From Serinicoccus chungangensis (GTDB lineage Bacteria; Actinomycetota; Actinomycetes; Actinomycetales; Dermatophilaceae): a DNA stretch of 64,000 nt. The position numbers were made by a program, and so were the translations under genes. The notes below the pieces were generated by a model. The model was not told where the DNA came from, made no database searches, and was given only the letters and a program-made list of their open reading frames with translations. Position 1 is the first letter of the stretch. Each line of letters opens with the position of its first letter. The stretch is from assembly GCF_001483745.1 (NCBI RefSeq), contig NZ_LQBL01000008.1, positions 1-64,000 of the forward strand. Reading direction: 5' to 3'. Positions 16,202-39,168 of the stretch are shown here, one piece after another.

Positions 16202-16205
16202 GGGG

Positions 16206-21552: not shown

Positions 21553-21705
21553 GGCTCTCCTCACCCGGCTCGACCGCCGGCCGACCCGACGTGGGGGCAA
21601 GCCTGCCACACCTCATACATCTCGCACCGGCGGTTCACAGCAGGCACATAGCCCCGGGCGGCGGAATGGACTCACACCACCGCACACCGCCCCCGAGGAG
21701 CACCC

Positions 21706-22323
21706 ATGAACGCCCTGATCCTGCCCGCCGTCGACCTGCTCGCGATCGTCCTGCTGACCTTCGCGATCTACCTTCCCCGGCACCGACGCACCGAGCTGGT
21801 CCCGGCCTTCCTCGGGGTCAACGTGGGGGTGCTGGCCGTCAGCATGGCGCTCACCTCCTCAGCCGCGACGGTCGGTCTCGGCCTCGGGCTCTTCGGCGTC
21901 CTGTCGATCATCCGGCTGCGCTCCAGCGAGCTCAGCCAGCGCGAGATCGCCTACTACTTCGCCGCGCTCACCCTGGGTCTGCTCGGTGGCGTCGGGGTGA
22001 CCAGCCTCGTGGTCGGCATCGGCCTCATGGCGCTCGTCGTGCTCGCCCTCGCGGTCGGCGACCACCCGCGGGTCGCCGGGCCGCAGGAGGAGCTGCAGCA
22101 GCAGCTGGTCGTGCTCGACCGGGCGGTCACCGACCCCGACGAGCTGCACGACCGGCTGGGGGCGCTGCTCGGCGGCGAGGTCGTCACCGCCCGCACGGTG
22201 CGCCTGGACCTGGTCAACGACAGCACGCAGGTCGAGGTCGGCTGGCGGGCGTCCGGCGGGACCTCGTCGACGGTGCAGGCCCCGGCCGGCGCCTCCGTGA
22301 CCCGCGAGGCGGTCGCCCGATGA
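21706..22323 (+). CDS. DUF4956 membrane protein
   Basis: 205 aa. Three to four hydrophobic segments in the first half, including the conserved stretch GLGLFGVLSIIRLRSSEL typical of DUF4956, then a soluble C-terminal domain. The ATG follows GAGGAGC at good spacing. It overlaps the VTC gene by ATGA. DUF4956 proteins are repeatedly found beside VTC and CotH/DUF4353-type proteins; their function is not established. Confidence 0.87.
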   Translation: MNALILPAVDLLAIVLLTFAIYLPRHRRTELVPAFLGVNVGVLAVSMALTSSAATVGLGLGLFGVLSIIRLRSSELSQREIAYYFAALTLGLLGGVGVTSLVVGIGLMALVVLALAVGDHPRVAGPQEELQQQLVVLDRAVTDPDELHDRLGALLGGEVVTARTVRLDLVNDSTQVEVGWRASGGTSSTVQAPAGASVTREAVAR

Positions 22324-23078
22324 GCCCGCTCGCCAGCCTCTCCCCCATCTCGCTGACGGACCTGGTCGCCGAGTCGGCCCTGCTCACCCGGGTGGACCGC
22401 AAGTACCTCCTCACCACCGCCCAGGTCGACGCCGCCCTCACGGACCTGCCCGCCGGGACCCGCGTCCTGGAGATCGAGGGCCTGCGCCGGTTCGACTACG
22501 CCTCGACCTACTTCGACACGACCGACCGCGCCAGCTACCGCTCGACGGCGACCGCGCGCCGCCGCCGCTGGAAGGTGCGCACCCGTTCCTACCTCGACAC
22601 CGGCACCTGCTGGCTCGAGGTCAAGACCCGCGGCCCGCGCGGCACCACGGTCAAGACGCGCCAGCCGCACCCCGTGGGTATGCCGTCCGCCCTCACCGCG
22701 GACGCGGCCGGCTTCGTGGCGCGCACACTGCGCGACCAGGGGGTGCCGCTGCCCGGGGACGGCTGGGACGCGGCGCCCGCGCTCGACACGGCATACCGCA
22801 GGACGACGCTCGCCCTCGCCGACGGCGCCCGAGCCACGATCGACACGGCGCTGCGCTGGACCTCGCCGGACGGCACCGAGCTGGCGCCCGAGGGCGTCGC
22901 CATCGTCGAGACCAAGGGCGGGTCCACCCCGACCTCGTTGGACCGCGCGCTCTGGGCCGCCGGCCACCGGCCGGTGCGGATCAGCAAGTTCGCCAACGGC
23001 CTGGCTCTGCTCGACCCGACCCTGCCCGCGCACCGCTGGCACCGCCTGCTCTCGACCACCGGCCCGCTGGCCGCCTGA
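22320..23078 (+). CDS. VTC domain protein (polyphosphate polymerase-like)
   Basis: 252 aa in the CYTH/TTM-tunnel superfamily. The N-terminal RVDRKYLL is the hallmark basic motif that binds triphosphate. Further basic and acidic tunnel residues are in STYFDTTD, RRRRWKVRTR and LEVKTRG, and IVETKGG closes the barrel. Eukaryotic VTC4 makes polyphosphate from ATP, but bacterial members are mostly uncharacterised. It starts inside the DUF4956 stop and is followed 27 nt later by the DUF4353 lipoprotein. Confidence 0.87.
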   Translation: MSPLASLSPISLTDLVAESALLTRVDRKYLLTTAQVDAALTDLPAGTRVLEIEGLRRFDYASTYFDTTDRASYRSTATARRRRWKVRTRSYLDTGTCWLEVKTRGPRGTTVKTRQPHPVGMPSALTADAAGFVARTLRDQGVPLPGDGWDAAPALDTAYRRTTLALADGARATIDTALRWTSPDGTELAPEGVAIVETKGGSTPTSLDRALWAAGHRPVRISKFANGLALLDPTLPAHRWHRLLSTTGPLAA

Positions 23079-23105
23079 CCCACCACCCACCGAAGGAGAA
23101 CCACC

Positions 23106-24701
23106 ATGAGCACCACCCGCACCCGCCTGCGCACCACCGCCGCCAGCCTCGCCGTCGCCGCCCTGATCGCCGGCTGCGGCGTCCAGGGGACCACCGGCAC
23201 CACCGCCGCCGGCAGCACCGTCAGCACGAGCACCTCCGACAGCGAGGGCTCGACCGAGGAGACGAGTGGCACGGCCGAGGAGAGCGCCGCGGCGCCCGAG
23301 GACGACGAGGCCGCCGGCGAGGACACCGAGGAGGCGATCGGCACCGTCGGCCTCACCACTCACGCCGACGGCGACGAGGCCGACTACGACGCGGCGAGCG
23401 CGGTGTCGGTGGAGCTGGCCGACGACGGCGGCAGCAGCAGCGCCGGGAGCGGCGTCGAGGTGAGCAGCACCGAAGAGGGGACCGACCTGGTGACGATCGC
23501 CGAGGCCGGCACCTACGTCCTCTCCGGGACCCTGACCGACGGCCAGGTCGTCGTCGACGTGCCAGAGGAGGACGACGTCACCGTCGTGCTCGACGGGGTC
23601 GAGATCACCAGCTCGCTCGGGTCGGCGCTGCAGATCAGCTCCGCCGAGGACGCCACGGTCGTGCTCGCGGACGGCTCGGACAACGCCCTGACCGACCCCG
23701 AGACGTATGCCCAGACCGAGGCAAGCGTCGATGAGGAGACCGGCGAGGAGGTGGACGCGCCCAACGCGGCGCTCTACTCCACCGCCGACCTCACCATCGC
23801 CGGCACCGGGGCGCTGACCGTCGAGAGCTACGGCGCCGACGGCATCACGAGCAAGGACGGCTTGGTGATCCTCTCCGGTGAGATCACCGTCAACGCCGTC
23901 GACGACGGGATCCGCGGCAAGGACTTCCTGTCGATCCAGGGCGGCACCCTCACCGTCACCGCCAACGGCGACGCGTTGAAGTCGGACAACACCGAGGACG
24001 GCACCGGCATCATCGCCGTCTCGGGTGACTCGACCGAGATCACCGTCGCGGCCGGTGACGACGCCGTGAAGGCCGAGAACGTCATCGACCTGGTCGACGG
24101 CACCCTGACCGTCACCCAGTCGCTCGAAGGACTCGAGTCGGCCCGGATCGTCGTGGAGGGCGGCACCACCGAGGTCACCGCGAGCGACGACGCGCTCAAC
24201 GCCGCCTCCGACACGGTCACGCCGAGCGTGGAGATCAGTGGCGGCGAGCTCACCCTCACCTCGGACGGTGACGGCCTCGACTCCAACGGCACGGTCACGA
24301 TGACCGGCGGCACGGTCGTGGTCAACGGACCCACGATGGACGGCAACGGCGCCGTGGACGTCGACGGTGACTTCCTCCTCTCCGGCGGCACCCTCACCGC
24401 GGTGGGCAGCGCCGGGATGATGATGGCACCTTCCACCGACAGCGAGCAGGCCTCGATCGCCACCGCCCTGTCCGGCTCGGTTGCGGCCGGCGAGACGCTC
24501 ACCGTGACGGACGCCGACGGCGCCGTCGTCGCCGAGGTCGCGGTGACCAAGGACACCGCCTCGCTCGTGCTGTCCACCGCCGACCTGGTGGCCGGAGAGA
24601 CGTATACCGTCACCGCCGGCGGCACGGAAGTCGCCACGGCGACGGCGGGTGAGTATGCGCAGATGGGCATGGGCGGAATGGGCGGCGGCTCCCGGCCCTG
24701 A
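23106..24701 (+). CDS. DUF4353 carbohydrate-binding-domain lipoprotein
   Basis: 531 aa with GAAGGAG upstream of the ATG. A lipoprotein signal ends in ALIAGC (Cys24), followed by a long Ser/Thr/Glu-rich linker (about 25-100). The rest is a right-handed-helix-like repeat region with recurring D-G-I/V and SGGELTLTS units, typical of DUF4353. It ends in a Met-Gly-rich tail (MGMGGMGGGSRP) as many relatives do. It should be anchored outside the membrane; carbohydrate binding is a family annotation, not shown here. Third gene of the DUF4956-VTC cassette. Confidence 0.85.
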   Translation: MSTTRTRLRTTAASLAVAALIAGCGVQGTTGTTAAGSTVSTSTSDSEGSTEETSGTAEESAAAPEDDEAAGEDTEEAIGTVGLTTHADGDEADYDAASAVSVELADDGGSSSAGSGVEVSSTEEGTDLVTIAEAGTYVLSGTLTDGQVVVDVPEEDDVTVVLDGVEITSSLGSALQISSAEDATVVLADGSDNALTDPETYAQTEASVDEETGEEVDAPNAALYSTADLTIAGTGALTVESYGADGITSKDGLVILSGEITVNAVDDGIRGKDFLSIQGGTLTVTANGDALKSDNTEDGTGIIAVSGDSTEITVAAGDDAVKAENVIDLVDGTLTVTQSLEGLESARIVVEGGTTEVTASDDALNAASDTVTPSVEISGGELTLTSDGDGLDSNGTVTMTGGTVVVNGPTMDGNGAVDVDGDFLLSGGTLTAVGSAGMMMAPSTDSEQASIATALSGSVAAGETLTVTDADGAVVAEVAVTKDTASLVLSTADLVAGETYTVTAGGTEVATATAGEYAQMGMGGMGGGSRP

Positions 24702-25182: not shown

Positions 25183-25201
25183 AACCACGGAAGGAGTGGT
25201 C

Positions 25202-26509
25202 GTGACCGGCACTGCTCCTGAGGTACGACGGACCCCGGCGCAGCAGCACTGGCGACGAGCAGGTCAGGCGGCGAACGTGCTGGCCGTGCTGACGGCCGGG
25301 CTGCTCGACCTCGGGACCGCCGGAGTGCTGTCCGGTCCGCTGCGCACCTTCGGCGGCATGGAGATCTCGGGTCTGGCCATGGCGCCACCCGTGCTCGTCA
25401 TGGTCGCTCTCCTCTTCGTCAGGAGGCGCTATCCGCTACCGGTCCTGCTGGCGACCACCGGCATCTCGATCGCCGCCATGCTGGTCTTCACCACGGCGCA
25501 ACCGCTCTTCTGCGTCCTGGTCGCCCTGCACGCAGCATCGCGACGGGGCAGCCTGCGCCGTTCGCTGCTCGCCCTCGGGATCGCCCTGACCACGGTTCCC
25601 ATGGTGGTGCTCGCGGTGCACAGGTCCTACGACGACCCCACGCCGCTCGACTGGATCTTCCCCGGCGTGTTCTTCATCGTCGTCGTGATGACCGCTTGGG
25701 GGGTCGCGACCCGCGACCGACTCTCGCACGAGCGCAACCGGGACCTGCACGGTGAGATCGACGTCCGCGCCGAGGAGGCCGCGCACGCCGAGCGGCAACG
25801 CATCGCCCGCGAGCTGCACGACATCGTCGCCCACTCGGTCAGCGCCATGATGATGCAGGCCGCCGGCGCCCGCGCCATGAGCCAGTCCGTCGCGAAGGAC
25901 GCACCGGACGACGCACGGCTCGACACGGTCCAGCGCGCCCTGGGCACGATCGAGTCGACCGGGGCGCAGAGCATGCGCGAGCTGCACCGGCTCCTCGGCG
26001 CGCTGCGCGAGGACCAGATCCACGACCACCTGCCCAGCAGCCTCGACCTCGACCACGCCCCCAGCGCCCAGCCCGGGCTGGACGACATCGACGCCCTGGT
26101 GGAGGTGCCGCGCAGCAGCGGTCTCATCGTCGAGGTCCACCGCTCGGGACACGCGCGGACGGTCGACCCGTCGGTGGGCGCGGCGGCATACCGGGTGGTG
26201 CAGGAGTCGCTCACCAACGCGCTCAAGCACGCCGGGCGCGGTGCGCTCGTGGACGTCTACCTCGCGTGGCAGGACACCGAGCTGCAGGTGCAGGTCCGCT
26301 CCCGCGCCAGCCACGGGATGCGTCCGGCGACGCCCAACGGCGGCACCGGGCTCCGCGGGCTGCGCGAGCGGGTGGGGCTCGTCGGCGGGAGTTTTGAGGC
26401 CGGGTGGTCCGGTGAGGAGTTCATCAACACCGCCGTCCTGCCGGTGCGGCCGCCCACGAGCGGCGGCCCGGCCGAGCGGCCGGCACCCGGCACGGCGGGG
26501 CGGGAGTGA
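25202..26509 (+). CDS. NarL-type membrane sensor histidine kinase
   Basis: 435 aa from GTG 25202, with AAGGAG 5 nt upstream. Five or so hydrophobic segments (about 25-170) form the membrane sensor. HisKA_3 follows, with phospho-His206 in ERQRIARELHDIVAHSVS, then an ATPase domain with RVVQESLTNALKHAG (N box) and GGTGLRGLRERV (G2). The usual G1 DxGxG is not obvious (VQVRSRASHG instead), so ATP binding may be weak. The stop overlaps the regulator start as GTGA. Confidence 0.87.
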   Translation: MTGTAPEVRRTPAQQHWRRAGQAANVLAVLTAGLLDLGTAGVLSGPLRTFGGMEISGLAMAPPVLVMVALLFVRRRYPLPVLLATTGISIAAMLVFTTAQPLFCVLVALHAASRRGSLRRSLLALGIALTTVPMVVLAVHRSYDDPTPLDWIFPGVFFIVVVMTAWGVATRDRLSHERNRDLHGEIDVRAEEAAHAERQRIARELHDIVAHSVSAMMMQAAGARAMSQSVAKDAPDDARLDTVQRALGTIESTGAQSMRELHRLLGALREDQIHDHLPSSLDLDHAPSAQPGLDDIDALVEVPRSSGLIVEVHRSGHARTVDPSVGAAAYRVVQESLTNALKHAGRGALVDVYLAWQDTELQVQVRSRASHGMRPATPNGGTGLRGLRERVGLVGGSFEAGWSGEEFINTAVLPVRPPTSGGPAERPAPGTAGRE

Positions 26510-27171
26510 GCATCACGGTCGTGATCGCCGACGACCAGCAGGAGGTCCGCGAGGGCCTGGAGATGCTGCTCGGCGTGCACGGCGACATCGAGGTGGTCGG
26601 CCTCGCCGCGGACGGCGACGAGGCGGTTGCGCTGACCGAGCAGACCTCGCCCGACGTCGTCGTCATGGACATCCGGATGCCGGGGACGGACGGCATCGAG
26701 GCGACCCGCCGGATCGTGCAGGAGTGTCCGGAGAAGGGGGCCGTGACGACCGTCCTCATGCTCACGACCTTCGACCACGACGACGCGCTCTACGGCGCGC
26801 TGCGGGCCGGAGCGTCGGGCTACATGCTCAAGGACGCCGCCCCCAGCCGGCTCCCCGACGCGATCCGGCAGGTCGCCGCGGGTGAGTCCTGGATCGACCC
26901 GAGCGTGGCCGGCAAGGTCATCGAGACCCTGCGCGACACGGCACCGCGGGACGCCCGGGGGCTGCCGGACCTCGACCTGCTCTCCCCGCGCGAGCTCGAG
27001 GTGCTGAAGCTCATGGGTGACGCGCCCTCCAACACCGACCTCGCCCGCCAGCTCTACGTCTCCGAGGCGACGATCAAGACGCACATCTCCCGGCTGCTCA
27101 TGAAGACCGGCAGCTCCGAGCGCGCCCAGCTCGTGGCCCTGGCCTACAAGACCGGCCTCGTGCAGCCCTGA
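26506..27171 (+). CDS. NarL/FixJ-family response regulator
   Basis: 221 aa. Receiver domain with DD near residues 9-10, phosphoacceptor Asp55 in VVMDIRMPG and the conserved Lys in MLKDAAP. The C-terminal LuxR helix-turn-helix (about 155-215) reads LSPRELEVLKLMGDAPSN then ATIKTHISRLLMK. The GTG is translationally coupled to the kinase. The target is unknown; the dap operon starts 178 nt downstream on the same strand and is a candidate (inference). Confidence 0.9.
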   Translation: MSITVVIADDQQEVREGLEMLLGVHGDIEVVGLAADGDEAVALTEQTSPDVVVMDIRMPGTDGIEATRRIVQECPEKGAVTTVLMLTTFDHDDALYGALRAGASGYMLKDAAPSRLPDAIRQVAAGESWIDPSVAGKVIETLRDTAPRDARGLPDLDLLSPRELEVLKLMGDAPSNTDLARQLYVSEATIKTHISRLLMKTGSSERAQLVALAYKTGLVQP

Positions 27172-27348
27172 CCCTTCTCTGAGAGCCGCGCGGCGTACCA
27201 AGTTCGTCGCCTCGTGCGGGAGGACGGGGAGCCCTGACCGCCGCCCCGCAGGAGATCGTCCGGCCTGCGCGCTGATCCGCAGGAAATACGCCCTGACCTG
27301 CGAAAACGCCGTTTGCGAGGCTTCCGTGAGCGCCGACATACTCGTCCG

Positions 27349-28050
27349 GTGCCCACCCGCATCGGACTCTTCGGCACCGGACGCCTCGGCTCGGCGATCC
27401 GGCGGCTCGCCGACTCCCGGGACGACGTCGACGTCGTCTGGGCGGTGCGGAGCAGCGACCCCGAGGCACGGGAGGCGGTGGACGTCGCGATCGACGTCAG
27501 CACCGGCACGGCCGTCGCCGCGCACCTCGCGTGGGCGCAGCGCAGCGGCACCGATCTCGTGGTCGGCGCGACCGGCTTCGACCCCGCGCTGCTCGACACC
27601 GAGCTGGGCGTGCGGGTGCTCGTCGCACCGAACTTCTCCCTCGGGGTCGCCCTCGCCCGCCGCGTGAGCAGGCTGCTCGGGGGGTATGCCGCCGCGCACC
27701 GCGCCGCGGGCATACCGGTCGACCTCGCGGTCACCGAGACCCATCACCGCCACAAGGTCGACGCACCCAGCGGCACCGCGCTCTCCCTGCGCGACGCGCT
27801 GGCCGACGCTGCCGGTGCCGGCGCAGCGGACGTCCAGACCACCAGCCTGCGACTCGGGGAGGTCGTGGGCGAGCACGAGGTCACCCTCGCCTCCCCCACC
27901 GAGACGATCACCCTCCGGCACACCGCGCACGACCGCGACCTCTTCGCCACCGGGGCCCTGACGGCCGCACTCTGGCTCACCGACCGGCCCGGACCGGGCC
28001 TGTTCACCCTCGACGACCTCGCCGAGGACCACCTGAAGGAGACAGCATGA
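27349..28050 (+). CDS. dapB: 4-hydroxy-tetrahydrodipicolinate reductase
   Basis: 233 aa, slightly short for the family. NAD(P)-binding GLFGTGRLGSAI at the N-terminus and the substrate motif ETHHRHKVDAPSGTALSL. The HRHKVDAPSGTAL form resembles proteobacterial DapB, whereas typical actinobacterial enzymes have HPHKADAPSGTA (from general knowledge of the family). GTG start with CATACT 6 nt upstream and no ribosome site, suggesting a leaderless promoter for the operon. It overlaps dapA by ATGA. Confidence 0.88.
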   Translation: MPTRIGLFGTGRLGSAIRRLADSRDDVDVVWAVRSSDPEAREAVDVAIDVSTGTAVAAHLAWAQRSGTDLVVGATGFDPALLDTELGVRVLVAPNFSLGVALARRVSRLLGGYAAAHRAAGIPVDLAVTETHHRHKVDAPSGTALSLRDALADAAGAGAADVQTTSLRLGEVVGEHEVTLASPTETITLRHTAHDRDLFATGALTAALWLTDRPGPGLFTLDDLAEDHLKETA

Positions 28051-29069
28051 GCACCAGCCTCACCGCAGCACCGTTCACCGGTCTCGGCGTCGCCCTGGCG
28101 ACGCCGTTCACGACCGGGACCGACGCCGTGGGCGGCTCGCGAAAGCCCGCTGTCGACCACGACGCCTTCGGCCGGCTCGTCGAGCACGTGATCGCCGACG
28201 GGCGGGGGATCGACTGGCTGGTCGTCCTCGGCTCCACCGGCGAGGCCGCCACGGTCACCGACGTCGAGCGGCACGCGCTGGTGCGCCAGGCCGTCGAGCT
28301 GGCCCGCCGCGACGACCGCCGCATCCCGGTCGTCGTAGGGGTCGGGCACAACGACACCGAACGCACCTGCGAGCTCGCCGGGCAGGCTGCGGCCGCCGGT
28401 GCCGACGCCCTGCTCGTCGTCACGCCGTTCTACAACAAGCCCCAGGTCAGTGGCCTGGTGGCGCACTACCGCGCCGTCGCCGACGCGGCGCCTGGGCTGC
28501 CGATCATCGCCTACAACGTGCCCGGCCGCACCGGCTGCAACATCACTCCCGAGGCGCTGCGGGCGATCTGGGAGATCGACCAGGTCGTCGCGATCAAGGA
28601 GAGCTCGGGCGACCTGCGCCAGATCGCCCGGATGTGCCAGGAGGCGCCGCAGGGCCGTGCGGTGCTCGCCGGGGACGACGACCTCGCGCTGGCCGGCATC
28701 GCCGTCGGCGCGCAGGGGCTGGTCTCGGTGTGTGCCAACGTGGTGCCGACCGAGACCCGGCGCCTCGTGCACGCCGCGATGGCCGGTGATCTGCCCCTCG
28801 CTCGCGAGAGCGCTGCGCTGCTGGCACCGACGATGGCGGCGATGTTCGCCGAGACCAACCCGGTGCCGGTCAAGGCCGCGCTGGCGTGCCTCGGCCTGGC
28901 CACCGCACAGGTACGGCTGCCGCTCTCCCCCGCCGAGCCGGACACCTGGTCGCAGGTCCAGACCGCGCTCGCCGACCTGCAGACCTCCCGCCGCAGCGAC
29001 TCGGCGTCGATCGGACGGCTGCCGGAGCGGGTCGCCGTCCCGCACGACACCTCGGCGCTGGCGTCGTGA
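28047..29069 (+). CDS. dapA: 4-hydroxy-tetrahydrodipicolinate synthase
   Basis: 340 aa, longer than the usual 290-300 because of about 40 extra C-terminal residues (after ADLQTSRRSD). The TIM-barrel aldolase motifs are complete: GSTGEAATV, the catalytic Tyr156 in AYNVPGRTG, and Schiff-base Lys184 in VAIKESSG. It condenses pyruvate and aspartate semialdehyde. It is coupled to dapB and dapD by four-base overlaps, so all five genes of the operon are likely made together. Confidence 0.9.
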   Translation: MSTSLTAAPFTGLGVALATPFTTGTDAVGGSRKPAVDHDAFGRLVEHVIADGRGIDWLVVLGSTGEAATVTDVERHALVRQAVELARRDDRRIPVVVGVGHNDTERTCELAGQAAAAGADALLVVTPFYNKPQVSGLVAHYRAVADAAPGLPIIAYNVPGRTGCNITPEALRAIWEIDQVVAIKESSGDLRQIARMCQEAPQGRAVLAGDDDLALAGIAVGAQGLVSVCANVVPTETRRLVHAAMAGDLPLARESAALLAPTMAAMFAETNPVPVKAALACLGLATAQVRLPLSPAEPDTWSQVQTALADLQTSRRSDSASIGRLPERVAVPHDTSALAS

Positions 29070-29911
29070 GCACCGTCGGCACCATGGAGTCCATGACTCA
29101 GCAGGACACGACCGACGGCACCTCGCTGCGCCAGGTCTTCGCCGAGGGCAGCGGCATCGACCCGACGGTGGAGCATGTGGAGCAGCTGCTCGCCGGGCTG
29201 GAGGACGGCTCGATCCGGGCCGCCAGCCGGTCCGCGGACGGCGACTGGACGGCGCACGGCTGGGTCAAGCGCGGCATCCTCGCCGCCTTCCGGCTCAGCG
29301 AGACCGTCGAGCTCGACTGGCCGGGCGGCAGCGTCGACAAGTCGCTCGTGCCGGCGCGCCGGATCACGGCGGGCGACGGCATACGCCTCGTGCCCGGCGG
29401 GACCTCGGTCCGCCGCGGTGCCCACCTCGCCCCGGGCGTGGTGGTCATGCCGCCGAGCTACGTCAACGCCGGGGCGCACGTCGGTGCAGGCTCGATGGTC
29501 GACAGCCACGTCCTCGTCGGCTCGTGCGCGCAGGTGGGTGCAGGGGTGCACCTGTCCACCGCCGTGCAGCTCGGCGGGGTGCTCGAGCCGGTCGGTGCCC
29601 GCCCGGTCGTCGTCGAGGACGACGTCTTCGTCGGGGCGCAGTGCGGGCTCTACGAGGGCGTGGTCGTGCGTCGCGGTGCCGTGCTGGCACCGGGCGTCAC
29701 GCTGACCTCGGGGACGACGATCTACGACCTGGTCGAGCAGCGCGAGCTGCGCGGCGAGGTGCCCGAGCGCGCCGTCGTCGTGCCCGGCTCCCGCCCGGCG
29801 CGCGGCGACTACGCCGACGTCCTCGGGCTCTCGCTCTACGCCCCCGTGATCGTGAAGTACCGCGACGCCGCGACCGACGCCGCCACGGCGCTCGAGGAGT
29901 CGCTGCGGTGA
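29066..29911 (+). CDS. dapD: Tetrahydrodipicolinate N-succinyltransferase, E. coli type
   Basis: 281 aa from GTG 29066 (GTGA overlap with dapA); ATG 29084 or 29093 are alternatives. The left-handed beta-helix hexapeptide repeats are clear (MPPSYVNAGAHVGAGSMVDS, GSCAQVGAGVHLS, LGGVLEP). An N-terminal helical domain reads LLAGLEDGSIRAA then HGWVKRGILAAFR. These match the roughly 275-residue E. coli-type DapD rather than the roughly 315-residue enzyme usual in actinobacteria, which is odd here. It transfers succinyl from succinyl-CoA to tetrahydrodipicolinate. Confidence 0.88.
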   Translation: MSTVGTMESMTQQDTTDGTSLRQVFAEGSGIDPTVEHVEQLLAGLEDGSIRAASRSADGDWTAHGWVKRGILAAFRLSETVELDWPGGSVDKSLVPARRITAGDGIRLVPGGTSVRRGAHLAPGVVVMPPSYVNAGAHVGAGSMVDSHVLVGSCAQVGAGVHLSTAVQLGGVLEPVGARPVVVEDDVFVGAQCGLYEGVVVRRGAVLAPGVTLTSGTTIYDLVEQRELRGEVPERAVVVPGSRPARGDYADVLGLSLYAPVIVKYRDAATDAATALEESLR

Positions 29912-31098
29912 GGACGGCCTCGCGGGTGGCGGGCCAGGGCCTGTCACCCATCCGACGCATGGCGCTCGGAGCCCCGCCGGACGCGATCAACCTCGGGCTC
30001 GGCGAGCCCGGGTGGCCGCTGCCGACCGGACAGGCCGTGCGTCCGGACGAGGGTCCGGCCGACCTGTCCTACGGGCCCAACACCTCCGACCCGGCTCTGG
30101 TGGCGGCGATCGCCGGCTACGCCCAGGCCCGCGGTTCGGACACGGTCGGTCCGGACGGGGTCATGGTCACCGCCGGCAGCCAGGCGGCGCTCTTCGCGCT
30201 CTTCCAGGCGTATGCCGAGCCCGGATCGGCCGTGCTCGTGCCCGACCCCGGCTTCGTCGCCTACCCCACCCTCGCCCGGCTGTGCGGCGCGACGCCCGTC
30301 GGCTACCCGCTCCGCCCGGACGGCGACCTCGACGCCGAGGCGCTGCTCGCGGTGCTGGGCGAGCACGGGCATACCTCCCTGGTCGTGCTCAACCACCCCG
30401 CCAATCCGACCGGCGGGTTGGCCTCTGCCGACGCGCTCCAGCGGGTCGCCGAGGCGTGCGCGGAGCGCGACGTGCTGCTCGTGAGCGACGAGGTGTATGC
30501 CGAGCTCTGGGTCGACGAGCCGCCCGCCTCGCTGCGTGATGTCACGGACACGGGCGTGGTGCTGGGGTCGATGAGCAAGGCCTTCGGCGCGCCCGGACTG
30601 CGGATCGGCTGGGCGACCGGCGAGCCCGAGGTGCTCGCGCCCGCCCGGCTGGTGCACAACGCGATGACCACGGCCCCGTCGCGGCTCTCCCAGCGCGCGG
30701 CGCTCGCGCTGCTCGGGGCCGCGGGCGAGGTGCTGCCCGCGGCGCGCGAGCAGCTCCGCCTGCGCTGGGACGCGGTCGAGCGACTGGCCCCCGGGGGAAA
30801 TGGACATAGCTTTCTGGGCGACGGGCACCACATTCCTATGTCCAGAACGGCGACGAGGGCCGGGTTCTACCTCTGGCTCGCCCTGCCCCACGACCTCGAC
30901 GACGACTCCACCTCGCGCGACGACCCTGCTGTCACCGAGGCGTTCGCCCTGCGCCTGCGCGACGAGGCCGGGGTGACGACGATCCCCGGGACCGCCTTCG
31001 GACCGCGAGGAGCGGGTTTCCTCCGCGTGAGCCTGGGTGGTCCGGTGGACGCGCTCGAGGAAGGACTCCGGCGCCTGGCGCCCTGGTGGAAGGCATGA
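29908..31098 (+). CDS. dapC: Succinyl-diaminopimelate aminotransferase (DapC type)
   Basis: 396 aa PLP-dependent class I/II aminotransferase. Motifs: NHPANPTGG, VSDEVYAEL, PLP Lys224 in GSMSKAFGAPGLRIGW, and the C-terminal Arg in FLRVSLGG. In this operon it should aminate N-succinyl-2-amino-6-oxopimelate to N-succinyl-LL-DAP. Residues about 297-315, just before RAGFYLWL, are an insertion relative to the family. They are encoded by a palindrome of lower GC (see repeat at 30801-30844) that keeps the frame. It is coupled to neighbours by GTGA and ATGA overlaps. Confidence 0.87.
   Translation: MRTASRVAGQGLSPIRRMALGAPPDAINLGLGEPGWPLPTGQAVRPDEGPADLSYGPNTSDPALVAAIAGYAQARGSDTVGPDGVMVTAGSQAALFALFQAYAEPGSAVLVPDPGFVAYPTLARLCGATPVGYPLRPDGDLDAEALLAVLGEHGHTSLVVLNHPANPTGGLASADALQRVAEACAERDVLLVSDEVYAELWVDEPPASLRDVTDTGVVLGSMSKAFGAPGLRIGWATGEPEVLAPARLVHNAMTTAPSRLSQRAALALLGAAGEVLPAAREQLRLRWDAVERLAPGGNGHSFLGDGHHIPMSRTATRAGFYLWLALPHDLDDDSTSRDDPAVTEAFALRLRDEAGVTTIPGTAFGPRGAGFLRVSLGGPVDALEEGLRRLAPWWKA
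30801..30844. repeat. Palindromic low-GC insertion inside dapC
   Basis: Arms TGGACATAG and CTATGTCCA (9 bp, perfect) enclose 26 nt. The surrounding gene is much richer in GC. The element reads through in frame. No second copy was found in this window. Confidence 0.6.
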
Positions 31099-32291
31099 TC
31101 TTGACCGCTGCGACGACTGACCTCTTCGCCTTCGACGAGGCGAGGCTCGACGAGCTGGCCACCTCGCACCCTGGCCCGTTCTTCGCCTACGACCTGGCGG
31201 CGGCACGCGAGCGCTTCGACCGGCTCCGCGCCGCCCTTCCCGCGCGGGTCCGCCTGGCGTATGCCGTGAAGTCCAACCCCGGGTTGCCCCTGCTCGAGGC
31301 CTTCGCCGGCCGGGGCGCGTGGTTCGACTGCGCGAGCGCCGGTGAGGTGTCGGCCGCGCTGGCCGCCGGCGGCACCGGCGCCGGAATGGTCTTCGCCGGC
31401 CCCGCCAAGACCGAGCGCGACCTGCAGGCCGCCCTCTTCGCCGGGGCCCGCGTCCAGGTCGACGGCATCGAGGACATCGCGCGGCTGCACGCCCTGCACA
31501 CCGGCGAGACCCCGCTGGCGGTCAACGTCCGGGTCAACCCTGCCGGGGGTGTGTCCGAGGTGGCGAGCATCATCGGTGGTGTCGGGCCGAGCGCGTTCGG
31601 GGTGGACGAGGAGGTGCTGGAGGCCTTCGTGACCGAGGCCGCGCGCTTCGAGCGGGTCGAGATCCGCGGGCTCCAGGTCTTCTCGGCCAGCAACGAGCTG
31701 GACGCCGGGCGGCTGCTGGCCAACCACCGGACGGCGCTGCGCATCGGGCGACGGCTGCAGGAGCTGCTGGGCCGCGAGCTCGACCTCGTCGACCTCGGCG
31801 GCGGTCTCGGGATCCGGTATGCCCTGACCGAGCCCAACCTCGACGTCCGGGCGGTCGGTGCGGGCCTCGGGCGCATCCTCGGCGAGAACGACTGGTTCAC
31901 CGGCGAGCTGTTGCTCGAGCCCGGCCGCTGGCTCTCCGGACCCACCGGCGTCTATGCCGCTCGGGTCGTGCGCACCAAGGTCTCCCGCGGCGAGCGCTTC
32001 GTCATGCTCGAGGGCGGCATCAACCACCTGCTCCGGCCGCTGCTGACCGGGCAGTCGTTCCCCACCCTGGCCGTGCGCCCCGGCGAAGGCGTCGTCGACG
32101 GCGAGCGGGCGACGACGACGCTGGCCGGGCCGCTGTGCACCTCGCTGGACCGGGTGGGCACGGGTGACCTCCCGGTGGACCTGCGCCCGGGAGACGTGGT
32201 GATGTTCGGGCAGACCGGCGCCTACGCCTACACCCAGGCCATGAGCCACTTCCTGTCGCACGCCCTCCCGGAGCAGCACTGGGTGTGCTGA
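31095..32291 (+). CDS. PLP-dependent decarboxylase, PvsE/BtrK-like (fold type III)
   Basis: 398 aa from ATG 31095 (GGAAGG upstream, ATGA overlap with dapC). Alanine-racemase-fold barrel with PLP Lys59 in AYAVKSNPG, and the glycine loop DLGGGLGI. Instead of the HxGS and CESGD motifs of true diaminopimelate decarboxylase it has FSASNELDA, EPGRWLSGPTGVY, LEGGINH and GPLCTSLDRVG. That pattern fits the PvsE/SbnH/BtrK group, which decarboxylates modified amino acids in siderophore and antibiotic pathways. The true substrate is unknown; annotating it as lysA would be misleading. Confidence 0.8.
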   Translation: MILTAATTDLFAFDEARLDELATSHPGPFFAYDLAAARERFDRLRAALPARVRLAYAVKSNPGLPLLEAFAGRGAWFDCASAGEVSAALAAGGTGAGMVFAGPAKTERDLQAALFAGARVQVDGIEDIARLHALHTGETPLAVNVRVNPAGGVSEVASIIGGVGPSAFGVDEEVLEAFVTEAARFERVEIRGLQVFSASNELDAGRLLANHRTALRIGRRLQELLGRELDLVDLGGGLGIRYALTEPNLDVRAVGAGLGRILGENDWFTGELLLEPGRWLSGPTGVYAARVVRTKVSRGERFVMLEGGINHLLRPLLTGQSFPTLAVRPGEGVVDGERATTTLAGPLCTSLDRVGTGDLPVDLRPGDVVMFGQTGAYAYTQAMSHFLSHALPEQHWVC

Positions 32292-32366
32292 ATGGACGGG
32301 CGGTGGCCCCGACCCCGCTCTGATTGACCGCCGGCCCCATTCGATCTAGCCACAGATCGCAAGTGC

Positions 32367-32400
32367 GGGTAGCCTATCGCTTGAATTACTAGGGCTACCC
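32367..32400. promoter_or_regulatory. Inverted repeat before orphan regulator
   Basis: Perfect arms GGGTAGCC and GGCTACCC with an 18-nt AT-rich spacer lie 31 nt before the GTG at 32432. It could be an autoregulatory operator or a terminator for the dap operon. GC content drops from here onward. Confidence 0.4.
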
Positions 32401-32431
32401 GGGCAACGCTCGGCTAGTTCAGAGGAGAGTC

Positions 32432-33100
32432 GTGACCCCTCACATGTGGCTGGTTCCCGTGCAATCTGATCCGGGCACTCTGCGCCTGACCTCTGAGGTG
32501 CTGCGTCATCAAGGGTCGGAGGTAGATTTGCTGTCCCCTGATCGGCTTCGCCTGCAACTCGAGCAAGGCCTACGGCAAGCCACAGTGATCCACGGGGGGC
32601 CCGTCACGACACCACTGCTCGATGTACAGCGATGGTTGCAAGAGTTCGACGTGCCAACGACCGTCTTGGTGGAGTCCATCTCTGACCGACATAGGTCCAC
32701 TCTTCGCAGGCGTGGAGTCTGCGATGTCCTGAGCCTCCCCGCGTCTCGAGAAGATCTTGAGACCATGGCTGAGCGGCTGGCACGCATGGCCCCTTCGGCG
32801 AAAAGTCCACGCTCTCTTCACGTTGGGGACCTTGAAATCTCGCCTGATCGTCACATCGCCACCGTTGCGCATATCCCTCTTCATCTGACCAAGTCGGAAT
32901 TTGCGATCCTCCAGACACTCGCGCTCCAAGCGGGTCGGGCTGTGGCAAGGTCCGACATCAAGCGCGCGCTCGGCGAAGACTATTCCGCACGGGCCCTTGA
33001 GTCACACATCAGCCGGCTCAGACTGAAACTGCGCAACGCAGGGACTGCTAACGTCATCACTCCGGTCAGACACAGGGGCTATCGACTGGAAGCGCGGTAG
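32432..33100 (+). CDS. Winged-helix regulator with receiver-like N-terminus lacking the phospho-Asp
   Basis: 222 aa, GTG start with AGAGGAGAG upstream. Residues about 125-220 form an OmpR/PhoB-type winged helix (LTKSEFAILQTLALQAGRAV, then ALESHISRLRLKLR and RHRGYRLE). Residues 1-115 follow the alternating pattern of a receiver domain. However, the third strand reads ATVIHGGPV with no phosphorylatable Asp, and the usual KP is LP (LSLPAS), so activation by phosphorylation is unlikely. It sits at the edge of the polysaccharide locus, which it may control. No kinase is adjacent. Confidence 0.8.
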   Translation: MTPHMWLVPVQSDPGTLRLTSEVLRHQGSEVDLLSPDRLRLQLEQGLRQATVIHGGPVTTPLLDVQRWLQEFDVPTTVLVESISDRHRSTLRRRGVCDVLSLPASREDLETMAERLARMAPSAKSPRSLHVGDLEISPDRHIATVAHIPLHLTKSEFAILQTLALQAGRAVARSDIKRALGEDYSARALESHISRLRLKLRNAGTANVITPVRHRGYRLEAR

Positions 33101-35161: not shown

Positions 35162-35941
35162 TCAGGGGGTGGGCAGCTCACCTCCTCGGCGTTGACGTGC
35201 TTGGCGCATGCGGTAGGACTGGCCGTTGGTGAGCACGGTGGTGGCGTGGTGCAGGAGGCGGTCGAGCATGGACACGGCGGTGGTGTGCTCGGGCAGGAAC
35301 CGTCCCCAGTCCTCGAAGGAGTGGTGGGAGGCGATGCCGAGGGATCGGCGTTCGTAGGCGGCGGCGACGAACCGGAACAGCAGCTGGGCGCCGGTGTCGT
35401 CCAGGGGTGCGAAGCCGATCTCGTCGACGAGGACGACGTCGTTGCGCAGCAGGGTCTCGATGGTCTTGCCGACGGTGTTGTCGGCCAGGCCGCGGTAGAG
35501 CGTCTCGACCAGGTCGGCCGCGGTCAGGTACCGCACCCGGTGGCCGGCGAGGACGGCGGCGTGACCCAGGGCGATGAGGGTGTGCGACTTTCCTGTGTCG
35601 GCGGGCCCGATGAGCGCGACGTTCTCCCTGGCCCGGACCCACTCCAGGGACGTCAGGTACGCCCAGGTCGGGGCCGGGATCGAGGAGGCGGCCAGGTCGA
35701 AGTCCTCGATCGTCTTGAGCACCGGGAACGCCGCGGCCTTGAGGCGTGCTCGCTCGTTGGAGGCGTCCCGGGCGGCGATCTCGGCCTCGACCAGTGCCCG
35801 TAGCACTTCCTCGGGCGACCACCGTTGGGTCTTGGCCGTGACGAGCAGCTCGGGGGCGAGCTGTCGCATCGCGGCCAGCTTGAGCCGGCGCAGCCCCGCG
35901 GTCAGGTCCGCATCCAGCACCGGCACGGTCGAGGCGCTCAC
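35162..35941 (-). CDS. istB: IS21 helper ATPase
   Basis: 259 aa from GTG 35941, overlapping the istA stop as GTGA, the coupling usual for IS21. AAA+ features: Walker A GPADTGKSH (about 112-120), Walker B VLVDEIGFAPLD, sensor-like IASHHSFEDWG, and the C-terminal RLLHHATTVLTNGQSYR typical of IstB. It assists IstA in target selection and strand transfer. No frameshift or stop is seen. Confidence 0.93.
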   Translation of the reverse strand: MSASTVPVLDADLTAGLRRLKLAAMRQLAPELLVTAKTQRWSPEEVLRALVEAEIAARDASNERARLKAAAFPVLKTIEDFDLAASSIPAPTWAYLTSLEWVRARENVALIGPADTGKSHTLIALGHAAVLAGHRVRYLTAADLVETLYRGLADNTVGKTIETLLRNDVVLVDEIGFAPLDDTGAQLLFRFVAAAYERRSLGIASHHSFEDWGRFLPEHTTAVSMLDRLLHHATTVLTNGQSYRMRQARQRRGGELPTP

Positions 35942-37461
35942 GAGGACACCGCCTTCGGTGCCGGGGCGTACTCGGCCAGCGACCGTCCCGCAGTCGTGGG
36001 CAGGTCGAGGACGAGAGCGTCCCCGGCCGGGCGCGGGGTCGGGAGCCCGGTGCCGGCGGCCAGGATCGAGCGGACGTCGGCCGCTTTCCACCGCCCGAAC
36101 GCGGTCGCTCGCTCGAGCGCGGCGACCATCGTGGCCTGCCCGTGGGCGGCGGTCAGGGTGTTGAGCTCGGCCAGCTCGGGACCCAGGCGGGTGTGCCCGG
36201 CCCCGGCGGCACCGGCGATGAACGCCTGCGCGGCCGGGCCGAGCGCGCAGAACTCTTTCTCCGCCGCGGACCGCGGGCGGATCGCCCGCACCGGTGCCGC
36301 GGGGCGGGCACCGCCGTAGTGCTCGTCCAGGACCGAGGCCTCACCGGGCGCCACGAGGGGGTGCTCGGCGTGCACCTGCCCGGTGCCGGGGTCCAGGACG
36401 AGCACCCGGGTGCCATCGACGAGCACGCCGACCTGGGTGCCGATCAGCGCGGTCGGAACCGAGTACCGGGCCGAGCCGAGGCGGATCGTGGACAGCTTGT
36501 CGACCTTGCGGGTGACCGGCGCCGGCCCGATGACCGGGCGCAGCGAGGGCAGCTCGGTGAGCAGGTCGACCTCGGTGGCCAACCGGTCGGATGGGACCGC
36601 GCAGGTCTCGGAATGGACCGCGGCGTTGACCTCCTGGCACCATGCCGCTGCCCGCTCGTTCGCGGCACCGAGGTCGGCCAGGACCCGCGCGGCGCCGGCG
36701 GCCAGGCCACCGGCGCCGGCGTGCTCGAGCAGCAGCGGCAGGGCCAGGTCGTCCTTGCCGTACCGGACCAGGTTCTCCACGATGCCCTTGGACTCCGGGT
36801 CGGCCGCCTCGCAGAAGTCGGGCCGGAACCGGTAGTGCGTGGCGAAGCGGACGTACTCAGCCGTGGGGACGACCCGGTTGGCGACCACGCCACCCTTCAG
36901 GCAGCCCATCCGGTCGGCGAGCACCACTCTTGGTGTGCCGCCGAGGACCTCGAAGCACTCGGCCAGCATGGCCATCGTCGTGGCCGCCTTCTCGTCGGCG
37001 GCGAGGCGGACGAACCGGAACCGCGACCAGGCCAGCACCGCGGCGAAGACGTGCACGCCGGCGATCACGCCCCAGTCGATGACCAGGTGCTCACCCGGGG
37101 ACCACGACGCCGGCCGGTGCCGGCGTCCGTGCTCGCTGCGGTACCGCGTCTTCTCCTGGGCGACGAGGCGGCGGAAGTTGCGCGCCGAGCCCGTGAACCC
37201 CGCCGCGCGGGCCGTGGGCAGCAGCCGCTTGGCACTGATCCGGCCCCGGGTGTCTTTCACGTCCCCGGCCACGAGCGCGCGCACGGCCTCGTAGTTCGCC
37301 GGCCGCGGCGCCCTGACCGGGCGGCCCTGACCGGCGGTGTGACGTTCCACGACCCGCTTGACGGTCTTGTGCGTGGTGCCGCAGATGTCGGCGGCCCCGC
37401 GGTAGGTGCCCACCTTCTGGTAGGCGGTGATGATGTCCAACTCTTCCCTCATGTTCTTCAA
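35938..37461 (-). CDS. istA: IS21 transposase
   Basis: 507 aa. N-terminal helix-turn-helix (GTYRGAADICGTTHKTVKRV), then a DDE integrase core with Asp in LVIDWGV, Asp in VLADRMG and Glu in DPESKGIVENLV, and a C-terminal beta-barrel. Likely TTG start at 37461 with GGGAG 5 nt before it; ATG 37452 is in frame. Catalytic residues are intact. Confidence 0.93.
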   Translation of the reverse strand: MKNMREELDIITAYQKVGTYRGAADICGTTHKTVKRVVERHTAGQGRPVRAPRPANYEAVRALVAGDVKDTRGRISAKRLLPTARAAGFTGSARNFRRLVAQEKTRYRSEHGRRHRPASWSPGEHLVIDWGVIAGVHVFAAVLAWSRFRFVRLAADEKAATTMAMLAECFEVLGGTPRVVLADRMGCLKGGVVANRVVPTAEYVRFATHYRFRPDFCEAADPESKGIVENLVRYGKDDLALPLLLEHAGAGGLAAGAARVLADLGAANERAAAWCQEVNAAVHSETCAVPSDRLATEVDLLTELPSLRPVIGPAPVTRKVDKLSTIRLGSARYSVPTALIGTQVGVLVDGTRVLVLDPGTGQVHAEHPLVAPGEASVLDEHYGGARPAAPVRAIRPRSAAEKEFCALGPAAQAFIAGAAGAGHTRLGPELAELNTLTAAHGQATMVAALERATAFGRWKAADVRSILAAGTGLPTPRPAGDALVLDLPTTAGRSLAEYAPAPKAVSS

Positions 37462-37623
37462 TGGAGCTCCCTGGGCGGTGCGGTGACTGGCTTGACACCG
37501 CCACCGTTCACCGTCCAGGGGCTCAGCTCATGGACGACACGAGCAGAGGGTGGGGACTTTTACTTGGCCACCAGCGGGGACCTCCCGTGGCCACCAGTGG
37601 GGACTTTGCCACGGCCATGGACA

Positions 37624-37684
37624 GTAGGTCCGCTCGATCCAGGTCACGATCGCGATCCGCAGGTCGTGGCGAGTGGCCCAATGG
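37624..37684 (-). pseudogene. IS3-family transposase, internal fragment
   Basis: The minus strand reads RHDLRIAIVTWIERTY in frame with the fragment at 35002-35096. Its upstream part is missing: the ISL3 left end at 37685 replaces it. Hence most of the IS3 element, including its catalytic core, has been lost. Confidence 0.8.
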
Positions 37685-39168
37685 GGCTCTTCGTCTTTGA
37701 GGGTGGGGTGAAGGGGGCGCGCCGACGCGCTGGGTGTAGGGGGTGATGGGGGTCGAGGTCCCCGATGATCAGAGGACTTCTACCTCTCCTGATCTCCAAG
37801 GACCTCGACGTGAATCACCCTACGTCGTCCTGCCCTGCCCTGGGCGCCGGCGGCGCGTACTGCGACACCTGCGACCTCCTCCTGGGACTTGAGGAACTGC
37901 ACGTGACCGCGGTCGAGCGCGGCGAGCAGCTGCTGACCGTGACCGTCGAGTCAGCACCGGCACCAGCGGGGTGCCCGACCTGCGGGACGGTGGCCGAGGC
38001 GCACAGCCGCCGGGTGGTTCGGCTGGTCGACGCGCCCTGCTTCGACACCCCGGTCGTGCTGCTGTGGCGCAAGCGTCGCTACCGGTGCCGGGAGGACGGC
38101 TGCCCGGTGCGGACGTTCACCGAGCAGGAACCGGGCCTGGCCCGACCACGGGGGCTGCTGACGACACGCGCCGCGCGGTGGGCGATCGGCCAGATCCGCT
38201 CCGAGCACGCCTCGGTGCAGGGCGTGGCCCGCCAGCTCGGGGTGCGGTGGCGCACCGTGTGGTCGGCGATCAAGCCGATCCTGACCGCCGCGGCCGACGA
38301 CGAATCCCGCTTCGGCGGGGTGGTCACCCTCGGGGTCGATGAGCACGTGTGGCACCACGTGTCCACCAAGGCGCCCGAGGACGGCGGGCGTGGTCCGAAG
38401 GAGTTGACCGGGATGGTCGACCTCACCGTCGATGAGAACGGGCAGGTCAGTGCACGTCTGCTCGATCTGGTCCAGGGCCGAACCCGGGCTGCGTACGCCG
38501 ACTGGCTGGCGGCTCGCGGCGAGGGCTTCACCGCCGGCGTGGACGTCGCGACCCTGGACCCGTTCCAGGGGTACAGGGCCGCGATCGATGAGGAGCTGGC
38601 CGACGCGACCGCGGTCCTGGACGCCTTCCACGTCGTCGCTCTGGGCACGAAGTGCGTGGACGAGGTGAGGCGGCGGGTGCAGCAGGCGACCACCGGTCAC
38701 CGCGGCCGCAAGGGCGACCCGCTGTACGGGATCCAGACGATCCTGCGCGCCGGGGCCGAGAACCTGACCGACAAGCAGCGGGGCCGGATCGAGCGGGCGT
38801 TCGCCGCCCGCGCCGAGCACGAGGTGGTCGACCTGGCCTGGCAGTGCGCCCAGCAGCTGCGCGCCGCGTACAAGCAGGCCGACAAGGCAGAGGGGCGCAA
38901 GATCGCCGAGCGGATCGTCGCGACCTTCCCCTCCTGCCCGATCCCCGAGATCGCCCGCCTGGGCCGGACCCTGCGCAAGTGGAAAGAAGCGTTCCTGGCC
39001 TACTTCGACACCGGCGCCACGAACGGCGGCACCGAGGCGATCAACGGTCTCATCGAGCTCCACCGGCGCATCGCCCGAGGCCTCACCAACTTCGAGAACT
39101 ACCGCCTGCGCATGCTCCTCATCGGCGGAGGACTGAACCTATGACCCCACCCTCAAAGACGAAGAGCC
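37685..39168 (+). mobile_element. Complete ISL3-family insertion sequence
   Basis: 1484 bp bounded by 25-bp perfect inverted repeats starting GGCTCTTCGTCTTTG at 37685-37709 and its complement at 39144-39168; the latter includes the last base of the transposase stop. The 8-bp flanks differ (CCCAATGG on the left, TGATAAAT on the right), so the expected 8-bp duplication is absent. The left junction is in an IS3 remnant and the right junction in an IS30 remnant. Confidence 0.9.
37810..39144 (+). CDS. ISL3-family transposase
   Basis: 444 aa from GTG 37810, preceded by AAGGA. Zinc-ribbon-like cysteines at the N-terminus (CPTCG, YRCREDGC), an HTH region (VQGVARQLGVRWRTVWS), and the DDE domain with LGVDEHVWHH, DPFQGYRAAI with VLDAFHVV, and a C-terminal Glu in GGTEAINGLI followed by RRIARGLTNFENYRLR, a strong ISL3 signature. 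No disruption is seen. Confidence 0.93.
   Translation: MNHPTSSCPALGAGGAYCDTCDLLLGLEELHVTAVERGEQLLTVTVESAPAPAGCPTCGTVAEAHSRRVVRLVDAPCFDTPVVLLWRKRRYRCREDGCPVRTFTEQEPGLARPRGLLTTRAARWAIGQIRSEHASVQGVARQLGVRWRTVWSAIKPILTAAADDESRFGGVVTLGVDEHVWHHVSTKAPEDGGRGPKELTGMVDLTVDENGQVSARLLDLVQGRTRAAYADWLAARGEGFTAGVDVATLDPFQGYRAAIDEELADATAVLDAFHVVALGTKCVDEVRRRVQQATTGHRGRKGDPLYGIQTILRAGAENLTDKQRGRIERAFAARAEHEVVDLAWQCAQQLRAAYKQADKAEGRKIAERIVATFPSCPIPEIARLGRTLRKWKEAFLAYFDTGATNGGTEAINGLIELHRRIARGLTNFENYRLRMLLIGGGLNL

What the first reader, a model, noticed from the sequence alone, without database searches (positions are those of the whole stretch)
27349..32291. Dedicated DAP-branch operon ending in a PvsE/BtrK-like decarboxylase
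dapB-dapA-dapD-dapC and a fold-III PLP decarboxylase are joined by four-base overlaps. Three points suggest this is not the housekeeping lysine pathway. DapD is the E. coli-type short enzyme and DapB has the proteobacterial HRHKVDAPSGTAL motif. dapE and dapF are absent. The last enzyme has GPLCTSLDRVG and FSASNELDA in place of LysA motifs, resembling siderophore and antibiotic decarboxylases (PvsE, SbnH, BtrK). A product such as a decarboxylated N-succinyl-DAP derivative would be new; this is inference.
Basis: partly seen in the sequence, partly recalled or inferred. Interest (0 to 1): 0.75.

Follow-up and report, generated by a model that had tools for sequence, protein, structure and literature searches.

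The report
Lysine operon bypassing meso-diaminopimelate
These five joined genes look like a bacterium's only way of making the amino acid lysine, and they seem to skip meso-diaminopimelate, a compound that the textbook bacterial routes share, by way of an unusual last enzyme whose activity has not been tested.

Summary
In detail: dapB-dapA-dapD-aminotransferase-decarboxylase are joined by four 4-bp overlaps at 27349-32291, and the decarboxylase lies outside LysA, near BtrK/PEP1-type enzymes.

The reading "not the housekeeping pathway" does not hold. The genome (rated 100% complete) has one DapB, no other LysA-fold decarboxylase and no DapF. In the genus (Ornithinimicrobium/Serinicoccus; ornithine cell wall) the decarboxylase is in 30 of 31 genomes and DapF in 0 of 31; DapF is in 134 of 140 other family genomes. 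In two members the old dapC and actinobacterial dapD are missing from their ancestral locus.

Best explanation: lysine made without meso-DAP. The decarboxylase acts on the free L-centre of N-succinyl-LL-DAP, giving N-succinyl-lysine; a hydrolase frees lysine. The active site fits: both arginines that hold DAP's distal carboxylate are kept, while the glutamate that holds its distal free amine is threonine (35 of 36 loci; one not covered). Nothing was assayed or modelled.

Against: four genus members also keep a LysA, two of nine keep DapE, one Serinicoccus species is reported with DL-A2pm, and the desuccinylase is unassigned.

The parts
27349..28050 (+). dapB, 4-hydroxy-tetrahydrodipicolinate reductase; the only DapB_C match in the genome
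   Evidence: TIGR00036 128.1 bits, cut-off 122; one PF05173 match in the own genome
28047..29069 (+). dapA, 4-hydroxy-tetrahydrodipicolinate synthase
   Evidence: TIGR00674 258.6 bits, cut-off 206.15
29066..29911 (+). dapD, tetrahydrodipicolinate N-succinyltransferase of the E. coli type (start codon uncertain)
   Evidence: NF008808 282.6 bits, cut-off 204; nearest solved chains are DapD enzymes
29908..31098 (+). PLP aminotransferase class I/II, presumed N-succinyl-LL-DAP aminotransferase (DapC role by position)
   Evidence: PF00155 176.8 bits; no DapC model over its cut-off
31095..32291 (+). fold III PLP decarboxylase, proposed N-succinyl-LL-DAP decarboxylase
   Evidence: PF02784 and PF00278; under the lysA and PEP1 cut-offs; R278, R314, T349 in 35 of 36 genus loci; tree

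Best explanation
The operon is the cell's housekeeping lysine pathway in a form that never makes meso-diaminopimelate. DapA and DapB make tetrahydrodipicolinate, DapD succinylates it and the aminotransferase gives N-succinyl-LL-DAP. The last enzyme decarboxylates the free-amine L-centre of N-succinyl-LL-DAP, giving N-alpha-succinyl-L-lysine, and a hydrolase coded elsewhere (M20-type is the guess) removes the succinate. Because the bond is broken at an L-centre, no epimerase (DapF) is needed; the genus could lose DapF because its cell wall uses ornithine. Shown by sequence: gene content, conservation, absence of DapF and the changed active-site residues. Inferred: every reaction, its substrate and stereochemistry, and the final hydrolase.
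For: Own genome: one DapB, one PF02784 decarboxylase (the operon's), no DapF (the DapF search rings in 9 of 14 control genomes). Genus: decarboxylase in 30 of 31, DapF in 0 of 31; DapF in 134 of 140 other genomes of the family draw. Old dapC and DapD_actino are missing from their ancestral locus in G139 and G133, while fdxA, citrate synthase and dapE stay. Purifying selection, strongest on the decarboxylase. Residues: Thermotoga LysA R249 and R285 hold the distal carboxylate, E315 the distal amine, and E315T lost most DAP activity (PMC8277567 passages); the genus enzyme keeps both Arg and has Thr for the Glu in 35 of 36 loci. LysA enzymes act on a D-centre, whereas the BtrK/SbnH relatives decarboxylate acylated L-amino acids (PMC7857480 passages). 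Ornithine is the diagnostic wall diamino acid (PMC9973731 passages).
Against: G151, G153, G163 and G165 also hold a LysA, of no clear use without DapF. Canonical DapE is kept in 2 of 9 genus genomes, and there free LL-DAP could be made. Serinicoccus chungangensis is reported with DL-A2pm (PMC6113628 passage). No desuccinylase assigned: the most DapE-like M20, P0006, has clear orthologs in only 18 of 31 genomes. The aminotransferase passes no DapC model. In three genomes (G154, G157, G166) the decarboxylase match is split between frames. Extra family decarboxylases with CES but no second Arg (L038, L040, L046) show that the motif is not a perfect guide.
Confidence: 0.5

Rival explanations
1. 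Same meso-DAP-free lysine pathway, but the succinyl group comes off first and the decarboxylase acts on free LL-DAP at either of its two equivalent L-centres, giving L-lysine directly.
For: G133 and G139 keep canonical DapE. In G057, a DapF-less genome of the same family, the operon is dapB-dapA-(LL-DAP aminotransferase)-(LysA-like decarboxylase) without dapD, which would give LL-DAP.
Against: In the genus the Glu that holds a free distal amine is Thr in 35 of 36 loci, also in G133 and G139 (L025, L023), while the G057 enzyme keeps Glu. DapE is not over its cut-off in 7 of 9 genus genomes.
Confidence: 0.2
2. Ordinary lysine pathway: an unrecognised racemase makes meso-DAP, and the decarboxylase is only a divergent LysA acting at the D-centre.
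For: The enzyme shares the fold and both Arg with LysA; LysA is kept in four genus genomes; one Serinicoccus species is reported with DL-A2pm.
Against: No DapF in 31 of 31 genomes; the CES motif that holds the distal amine is lost; the enzyme is outside LysA (100/98 split). PLP-type racemases were not searched for.
Confidence: 0.14
3. The operon makes a specialised product (siderophore, antibiotic or polysaccharide part) from N-succinyl-DAP, and lysine is taken up from outside.
For: Relatives of the enzyme serve siderophores and antibiotics (PMC7857480 passages); tabtoxin biosynthesis uses LysA-like TabA and DapD-like TabB, and TabA did not complement an E. coli lysA mutant (PMC3927611 passages). 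An amino acid permease gene lies at 7987-9462.
Against: Genus-wide and constrained; holds the only DapB of this genome; goes with deletion of housekeeping dapC and dapD in two members; no further gene is joined to it by overlap in the window.
Confidence: 0.14

Closest known systems
Succinylase branch of the DAP/lysine pathway (DapA-B-D-C-E-F-LysA)
   Same: DapA, DapB and DapD pass their models; an aminotransferase and a fold III decarboxylase follow
   Different: No DapF in the genus (0 of 31), no DapE over cut-off in this genome, a non-LysA decarboxylase
Meso-DAP decarboxylase LysA
   Same: Fold, PLP lysine, ExGR and the RPxL arginine
   Different: Thr for the distal-amine Glu, score under the lysA cut-off, outside LysA in the trees
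BtrK, SbnH, FigC and PEP1 decarboxylases
   Same: Nearest solved sequences are BtrK (154 bits) and 6knh (122 bits; the paper names its companion entry 6knk SbnH); shared CT motif
   Different: PEP1 rows and BtrK lack the second Arg; PEP1 neighbours are EPS-type, AMP-ligase-like and carrier-like genes read by eye, not dap genes
dapB-dapA-dapL-decarboxylase operon of G057
   Same: DapF-less genome of the same family, same gene order apart from dapD
   Different: No dapD; LL-DAP aminotransferase; its decarboxylase keeps Arg, Arg and Glu, pairs with E. coli LysA, and one clade with the genus enzyme is rejected (AU p 0.0068)
Tabtoxin genes tabA/tabB (named only)
   Same: LysA-like and DapD-like enzymes in one pathway that leaves the lysine route after tetrahydrodipicolinate (PMC3927611 passages)
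   Different: A phytotoxin cluster with many further genes and no dapA/dapB of its own; sequences not compared here

Membership tests
LysA, meso-DAP decarboxylase (TIGR01048) | Score over the curated cut-off (297.9) | tested here: not met
   200.0 bits
LysA, meso-DAP decarboxylase (TIGR01048) | CES motif with Glu for the distal amine | tested here: not met
   CTS in 35 of 36 genus loci, one not covered
LysA, meso-DAP decarboxylase (TIGR01048) | Two Arg for the distal carboxylate | tested here: met
   R278 and R314 in 35 of 36 loci; equivalence by motif alignment
LysA, meso-DAP decarboxylase (TIGR01048) | Groups with LysA in a tree | tested here: not met
   LysA rows on one side of a 100/98 branch, the genus enzyme with PEP1/BtrK on the other; unrooted
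LysA, meso-DAP decarboxylase (TIGR01048) | Decarboxylates meso-DAP at the D-centre | not testable with these tools
   needs an assay
PEP1 exosortase-associated decarboxylase (TIGR03099) | Score over the curated cut-off (478.45) | tested here: not met
   249.8 bits; relative L026 scores 581.7
SbnH/FigC/BtrK-type decarboxylases of acylated L-amino acids | Sequence kinship | tested here: inconclusive
   BtrK is the best solved match and is on the same side as the genus enzyme, but the joins among PEP1, BtrK and the genus clade are weak or long
SbnH/FigC/BtrK-type decarboxylases of acylated L-amino acids | Acts on an acylated amino acid at an L-centre | not testable with these tools
   needs an assay
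E. coli-type DapD | NF008808 over its cut-off (204) | tested here: met
   282.6 bits
DapC succinyl-DAP aminotransferase | A DapC model over its cut-off | tested here: not met
   TIGR03537 114.1 of 453.6; TIGR03539 not among the 25 of 75 rows shown
Succinylase DAP pathway | DapF epimerase | tested here: not met
   0 of 31 genus genomes, none in the own genome
Succinylase DAP pathway | DapE desuccinylase | tested here: not met
   Own genome: best TIGR01900 score 112 of 304.2 among the 8 of 10 M20 matches scanned; over cut-off in 2 of 9 genus genomes, not in the own

The most novel reading that the evidence does not exclude
A further bacterial lysine route in which no free diaminopimelate is ever made: aspartate to tetrahydrodipicolinate to N-succinyl-LL-DAP to N-succinyl-L-lysine to lysine, with a new enzyme activity, N-succinyl-LL-diaminopimelate decarboxylase, that took hold once the cell wall no longer used DAP. 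A related lineage (G057) may have reached a DapF-free route of its own with LL-DAP and a different decarboxylase.
Probability: 0.48. Interest if true: 0.85.

Novelty: new variant of a known kind. Interest (0 to 1): 0.72.

Why it matters
A paper read in passages says that four lysine routes from aspartate are known and that decarboxylation of DAP at its D-centre is their common last step (PMC8277567). A lysine pathway that skips meso-DAP would break that rule, add a new enzyme activity, explain how ornithine-walled actinobacteria could lose DapF, and mean that a pathway check which demands DapF and LysA would wrongly call such organisms lysine auxotrophs. One purified enzyme would settle it.

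Tried and rejected
Second housekeeping dap set: looked for as DapB, DapF and PF02784 in the own genome and not found. Old DapC, DapD_actino and further DapA copies were not searched for there; loss of dapC and dapD_actino is seen only at the ancestral locus of two relatives, and that locus was not found in the window's own genome.

E. coli-type DapD as a sign of foreign origin: weakened, since 76 of 394 actinomycete genomes have one.

P0006 as the missing desuccinylase: clear orthologs (52-100% identity) in 18 of 31 genus genomes, weak matches only in 5, none at E<=1e-20 in 8, so not adopted. Of the ten M20 matches eight were scanned, and only P0006 was traced across the genus.

Rfam element at 26400-32500: none at E<=1.

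G057's decarboxylase as sister of the genus enzyme: rejected (AU p 0.0068), so the shared stretch SNELD is convergence, chance or old retention. 6knh (SbnH-type) reads SNNLD there, BtrK and PEP1 rows do not. A second AU run was badly framed (the rows named were just the complement of PEP1/BtrK) and nothing is drawn from it.

Close relatives on plasmids: 169 records match, all under 60% identity, at most 36% in the 25 rows listed.

Papers: ten searches listed no report of an LL-DAP or succinyl-DAP decarboxylase or of lysine made without meso-DAP; long lists were capped (for example 25 of 108), and subscription papers and preprints are not covered. Five papers were seen in passages only.
Full report
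What is there. Five genes on the + strand run from 27349 to 32291 with four ATGA/GTGA overlaps: dapB, dapA, dapD, a PLP aminotransferase and a fold III PLP decarboxylase. DapA, DapB and DapD pass their NCBIfam cut-offs; the aminotransferase (25 of 75 rows shown) and the decarboxylase pass none. The aminotransferase is called dapC only by position. Upstream lies a two-component pair (25196-27171), downstream a gene with a Trans_reg_C DNA-binding domain (32432-33100), a sulfotransferase and a WecG/TagA glycosyltransferase. No Rfam element was found around the operon.

Whose genome. The nearest named records are Serinicoccus and Ornithinimicrobium (6 loci, 71-92% identity in the decarboxylase). 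The window's genome is rated 100% complete.

The only set, as far as tested. The genome has one DapB_C match, one PF02784 decarboxylase match, the operon's own, and no DAP epimerase (the same search rings in 9 of 14 control genomes). There are ten M20 matches; of the eight scanned none reaches a DapE equivalog cut-off, the nearest (L004, P0006) passing only the broad DapE-ArgE subfamily model, 238.1 of 217.6. Other DapA, DapC and DapD_actino copies were not searched for in this genome.

The genus. Of 31 genomes 30 hold the decarboxylase (65-100% identity; the miss, G159, is 75% complete) and none holds DapF. In the family draw of 149 genomes DapF is missing from all 9 genus members and from 6 of the 140 others: G008 and G057 (one genus, both 99% complete), G029 (58%), G034 (95%), G095 (82%) and G118 (83%). 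Canonical DapE is over its cut-off in 138 of 149: within the genus in G133 and G139 but not in the other 7 of 9; outside it is missing in G008, G057, G085 (68% complete) and G091 (75%). All five operon genes stand in the same order at 14 of 15 loci opened. pN/pS is below 1 for every gene and lowest for the decarboxylase.

Traces of replacement. In outgroup G010 the order is fdxA, dapC (TIGR03539 557.6 of 355.65 bits), citrate synthase, an unnamed gene, dapD (TIGR03535 501.6 of 441.5) and dapE (TIGR01900 512.5 of 304.2) (fdxA read by eye). In genus members G139 and G133 fdxA, citrate synthase, the unnamed gene and dapE follow each other, but dapC and the actinobacterial dapD are missing: in G139 only 96 and 29 bases lie between the neighbours, and tblastn finds nothing of either protein there (the one partial dapC hit is the fdxA part of that open frame). 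So the operon appears to have taken over from a dismantled housekeeping set.

Why the missing epimerase matters. LysA enzymes break the bond at the D-centre of meso-DAP (PMC8277567 passages) and so need DapF. DapD and DapC give N-succinyl-LL-DAP (established pathway knowledge, recalled), whose only free amine is on an L-centre. PLP chemistry at that amine gives N-alpha-succinyl-L-lysine. This is inference from pathway logic.

The decarboxylase. In the 30-row tree the LysA rows (with the G057 enzyme) are split from the genus enzyme plus PEP1 and BtrK at 100/98, and the genus clade has 100/100; in the 57-row tree the genus enzyme, PEP1, BtrK and g15 rows form one group at 99/96. The trees are unrooted and have long branches. 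Best solved matches: BtrK 154 bits, 6knh 122 (SbnH, as its companion 6knk is named in the paper), 2qgh 111 (a DAP decarboxylase). Characterised relatives decarboxylate N-citryl or O-citryl amino acids or a glutamyl-carrier (PMC7857480, abstract and passages). Outside the genus the best relatives are 39% identical in the family draw (G040; L026 from it passes the PEP1 model) and 36% among the class-draw loci opened (9 of the 70 further genomes). Of 15 such loci opened, 14 hold no operon-type dap gene by tblastn and one, L160, does; for the rest, AMP-ligase-like, carrier-like and EPS-type neighbours were read by eye from ORF starts in the five listed.

Active site. In Thermotoga LysA R249 and R285 bind the distal carboxylate and E315 the distal amine; the E315T mutant lost most of its activity on DAP and mainly took 2-aminopimelate, which has no distal amine (PMC8277567 passages). 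I match these by motif (ExGR, RPxL, CES), not by superposition. The genus enzyme has R278, R314 and T349 in 35 of 36 loci, the 36th (L064) not being covered there. LysA of three family genomes with a single match (L037, L039, L044), E. coli LysA and three LysA rows from within the genus have Arg, Arg and Glu. Three further CES rows from genomes with two or three matches (L038, L040, L046) lack the second Arg. Six of the seven rows labelled PEP and BtrK have Thr with Ala or Pro in place of the second Arg, the seventh (L033) Thr with Thr. A distal carboxylate without a free distal amine is what N-succinyl-LL-DAP offers; this is the main argument for decarboxylation before desuccinylation.

A related case. 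G057 has no DapF and no DapE over cut-off, and holds dapB-dapA-(LL-DAP aminotransferase, TIGR03542 517.9 of 364.7)-(LysA-like decarboxylase, 271.0 of 297.9). Its decarboxylase keeps both Arg and the Glu, and shares SNELD with the genus enzyme, though the two are not one clade. Kytococcus has lysine in its wall and appears as sister of Serinicoccus and Ornithinimicrobium in one tree of PMC6113628, without strong support in another (passages). LL-DAP as direct substrate would make it a second DapF-free route. G008 of the same genus shows no decarboxylase match.

Results against. LysA survives in G151, G153, G163 and G165 (28-31% to the query; about 23-32 kb from the operon in three, on another contig in G163) although these genomes have no DapF; its use there is unexplained. 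DapE survives in two members. Serinicoccus chungangensis is reported with DL-A2pm. In three genomes (G154, G157, G166) the decarboxylase match is split between frames, and in L015 dapB and dapD are; assembly error or decay was not told apart. The desuccinylase is not identified. No enzyme was modelled or assayed.

Verdict. The operon and the odd decarboxylase are real. It is very likely the housekeeping lysine pathway (my estimate about 0.85), likely free of meso-DAP (about 0.7), and N-succinyl-LL-DAP decarboxylation is the best single mechanism (about 0.5). Ten library searches listed nothing of this kind.

Noticed in passing
L160 (G057), about 8136-12602, - strand: dapB-dapA-LL-DAP aminotransferase-LysA-like decarboxylase operon in a genome of the same family without DapF: a possible second epimerase-free lysine route.
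   Followed up: partly
L069 10487-11851, L071 9027-10373, L073 12029-13393 (all - strand); L074: LysA genes kept beside the new operon in four genus genomes that have no DapF; use unknown.
   Followed up: partly
L111 (G186), about 8600-17850, - strand: dapC-like, dapD-like and LysA-like genes next to an asparagine-synthase-like ORF (read by eye): perhaps a specialised-metabolite cluster that uses the lysine branch.
   Followed up: no
window 40001-56000: G+C falls to 0.59-0.63 against about 0.73 in the flanks; holds glycosyltransferase, CDP-glycerol glycerophosphotransferase, Polysacc_synt and PKD-domain genes, with transposase genes (rve/Mu type and ISL3) at 35938-39144: a likely acquired wall-polymer island.
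   Followed up: partly
window 21591-24701 +: A VTC-domain protein followed by a Cthe_2159-type carbohydrate-binding protein and a two-component pair, directly upstream of the operon.
   Followed up: no
window 32432-33100 +: A protein with only a Trans_reg_C DNA-binding domain and no receiver match, 140 bases after the operon.
   Followed up: no
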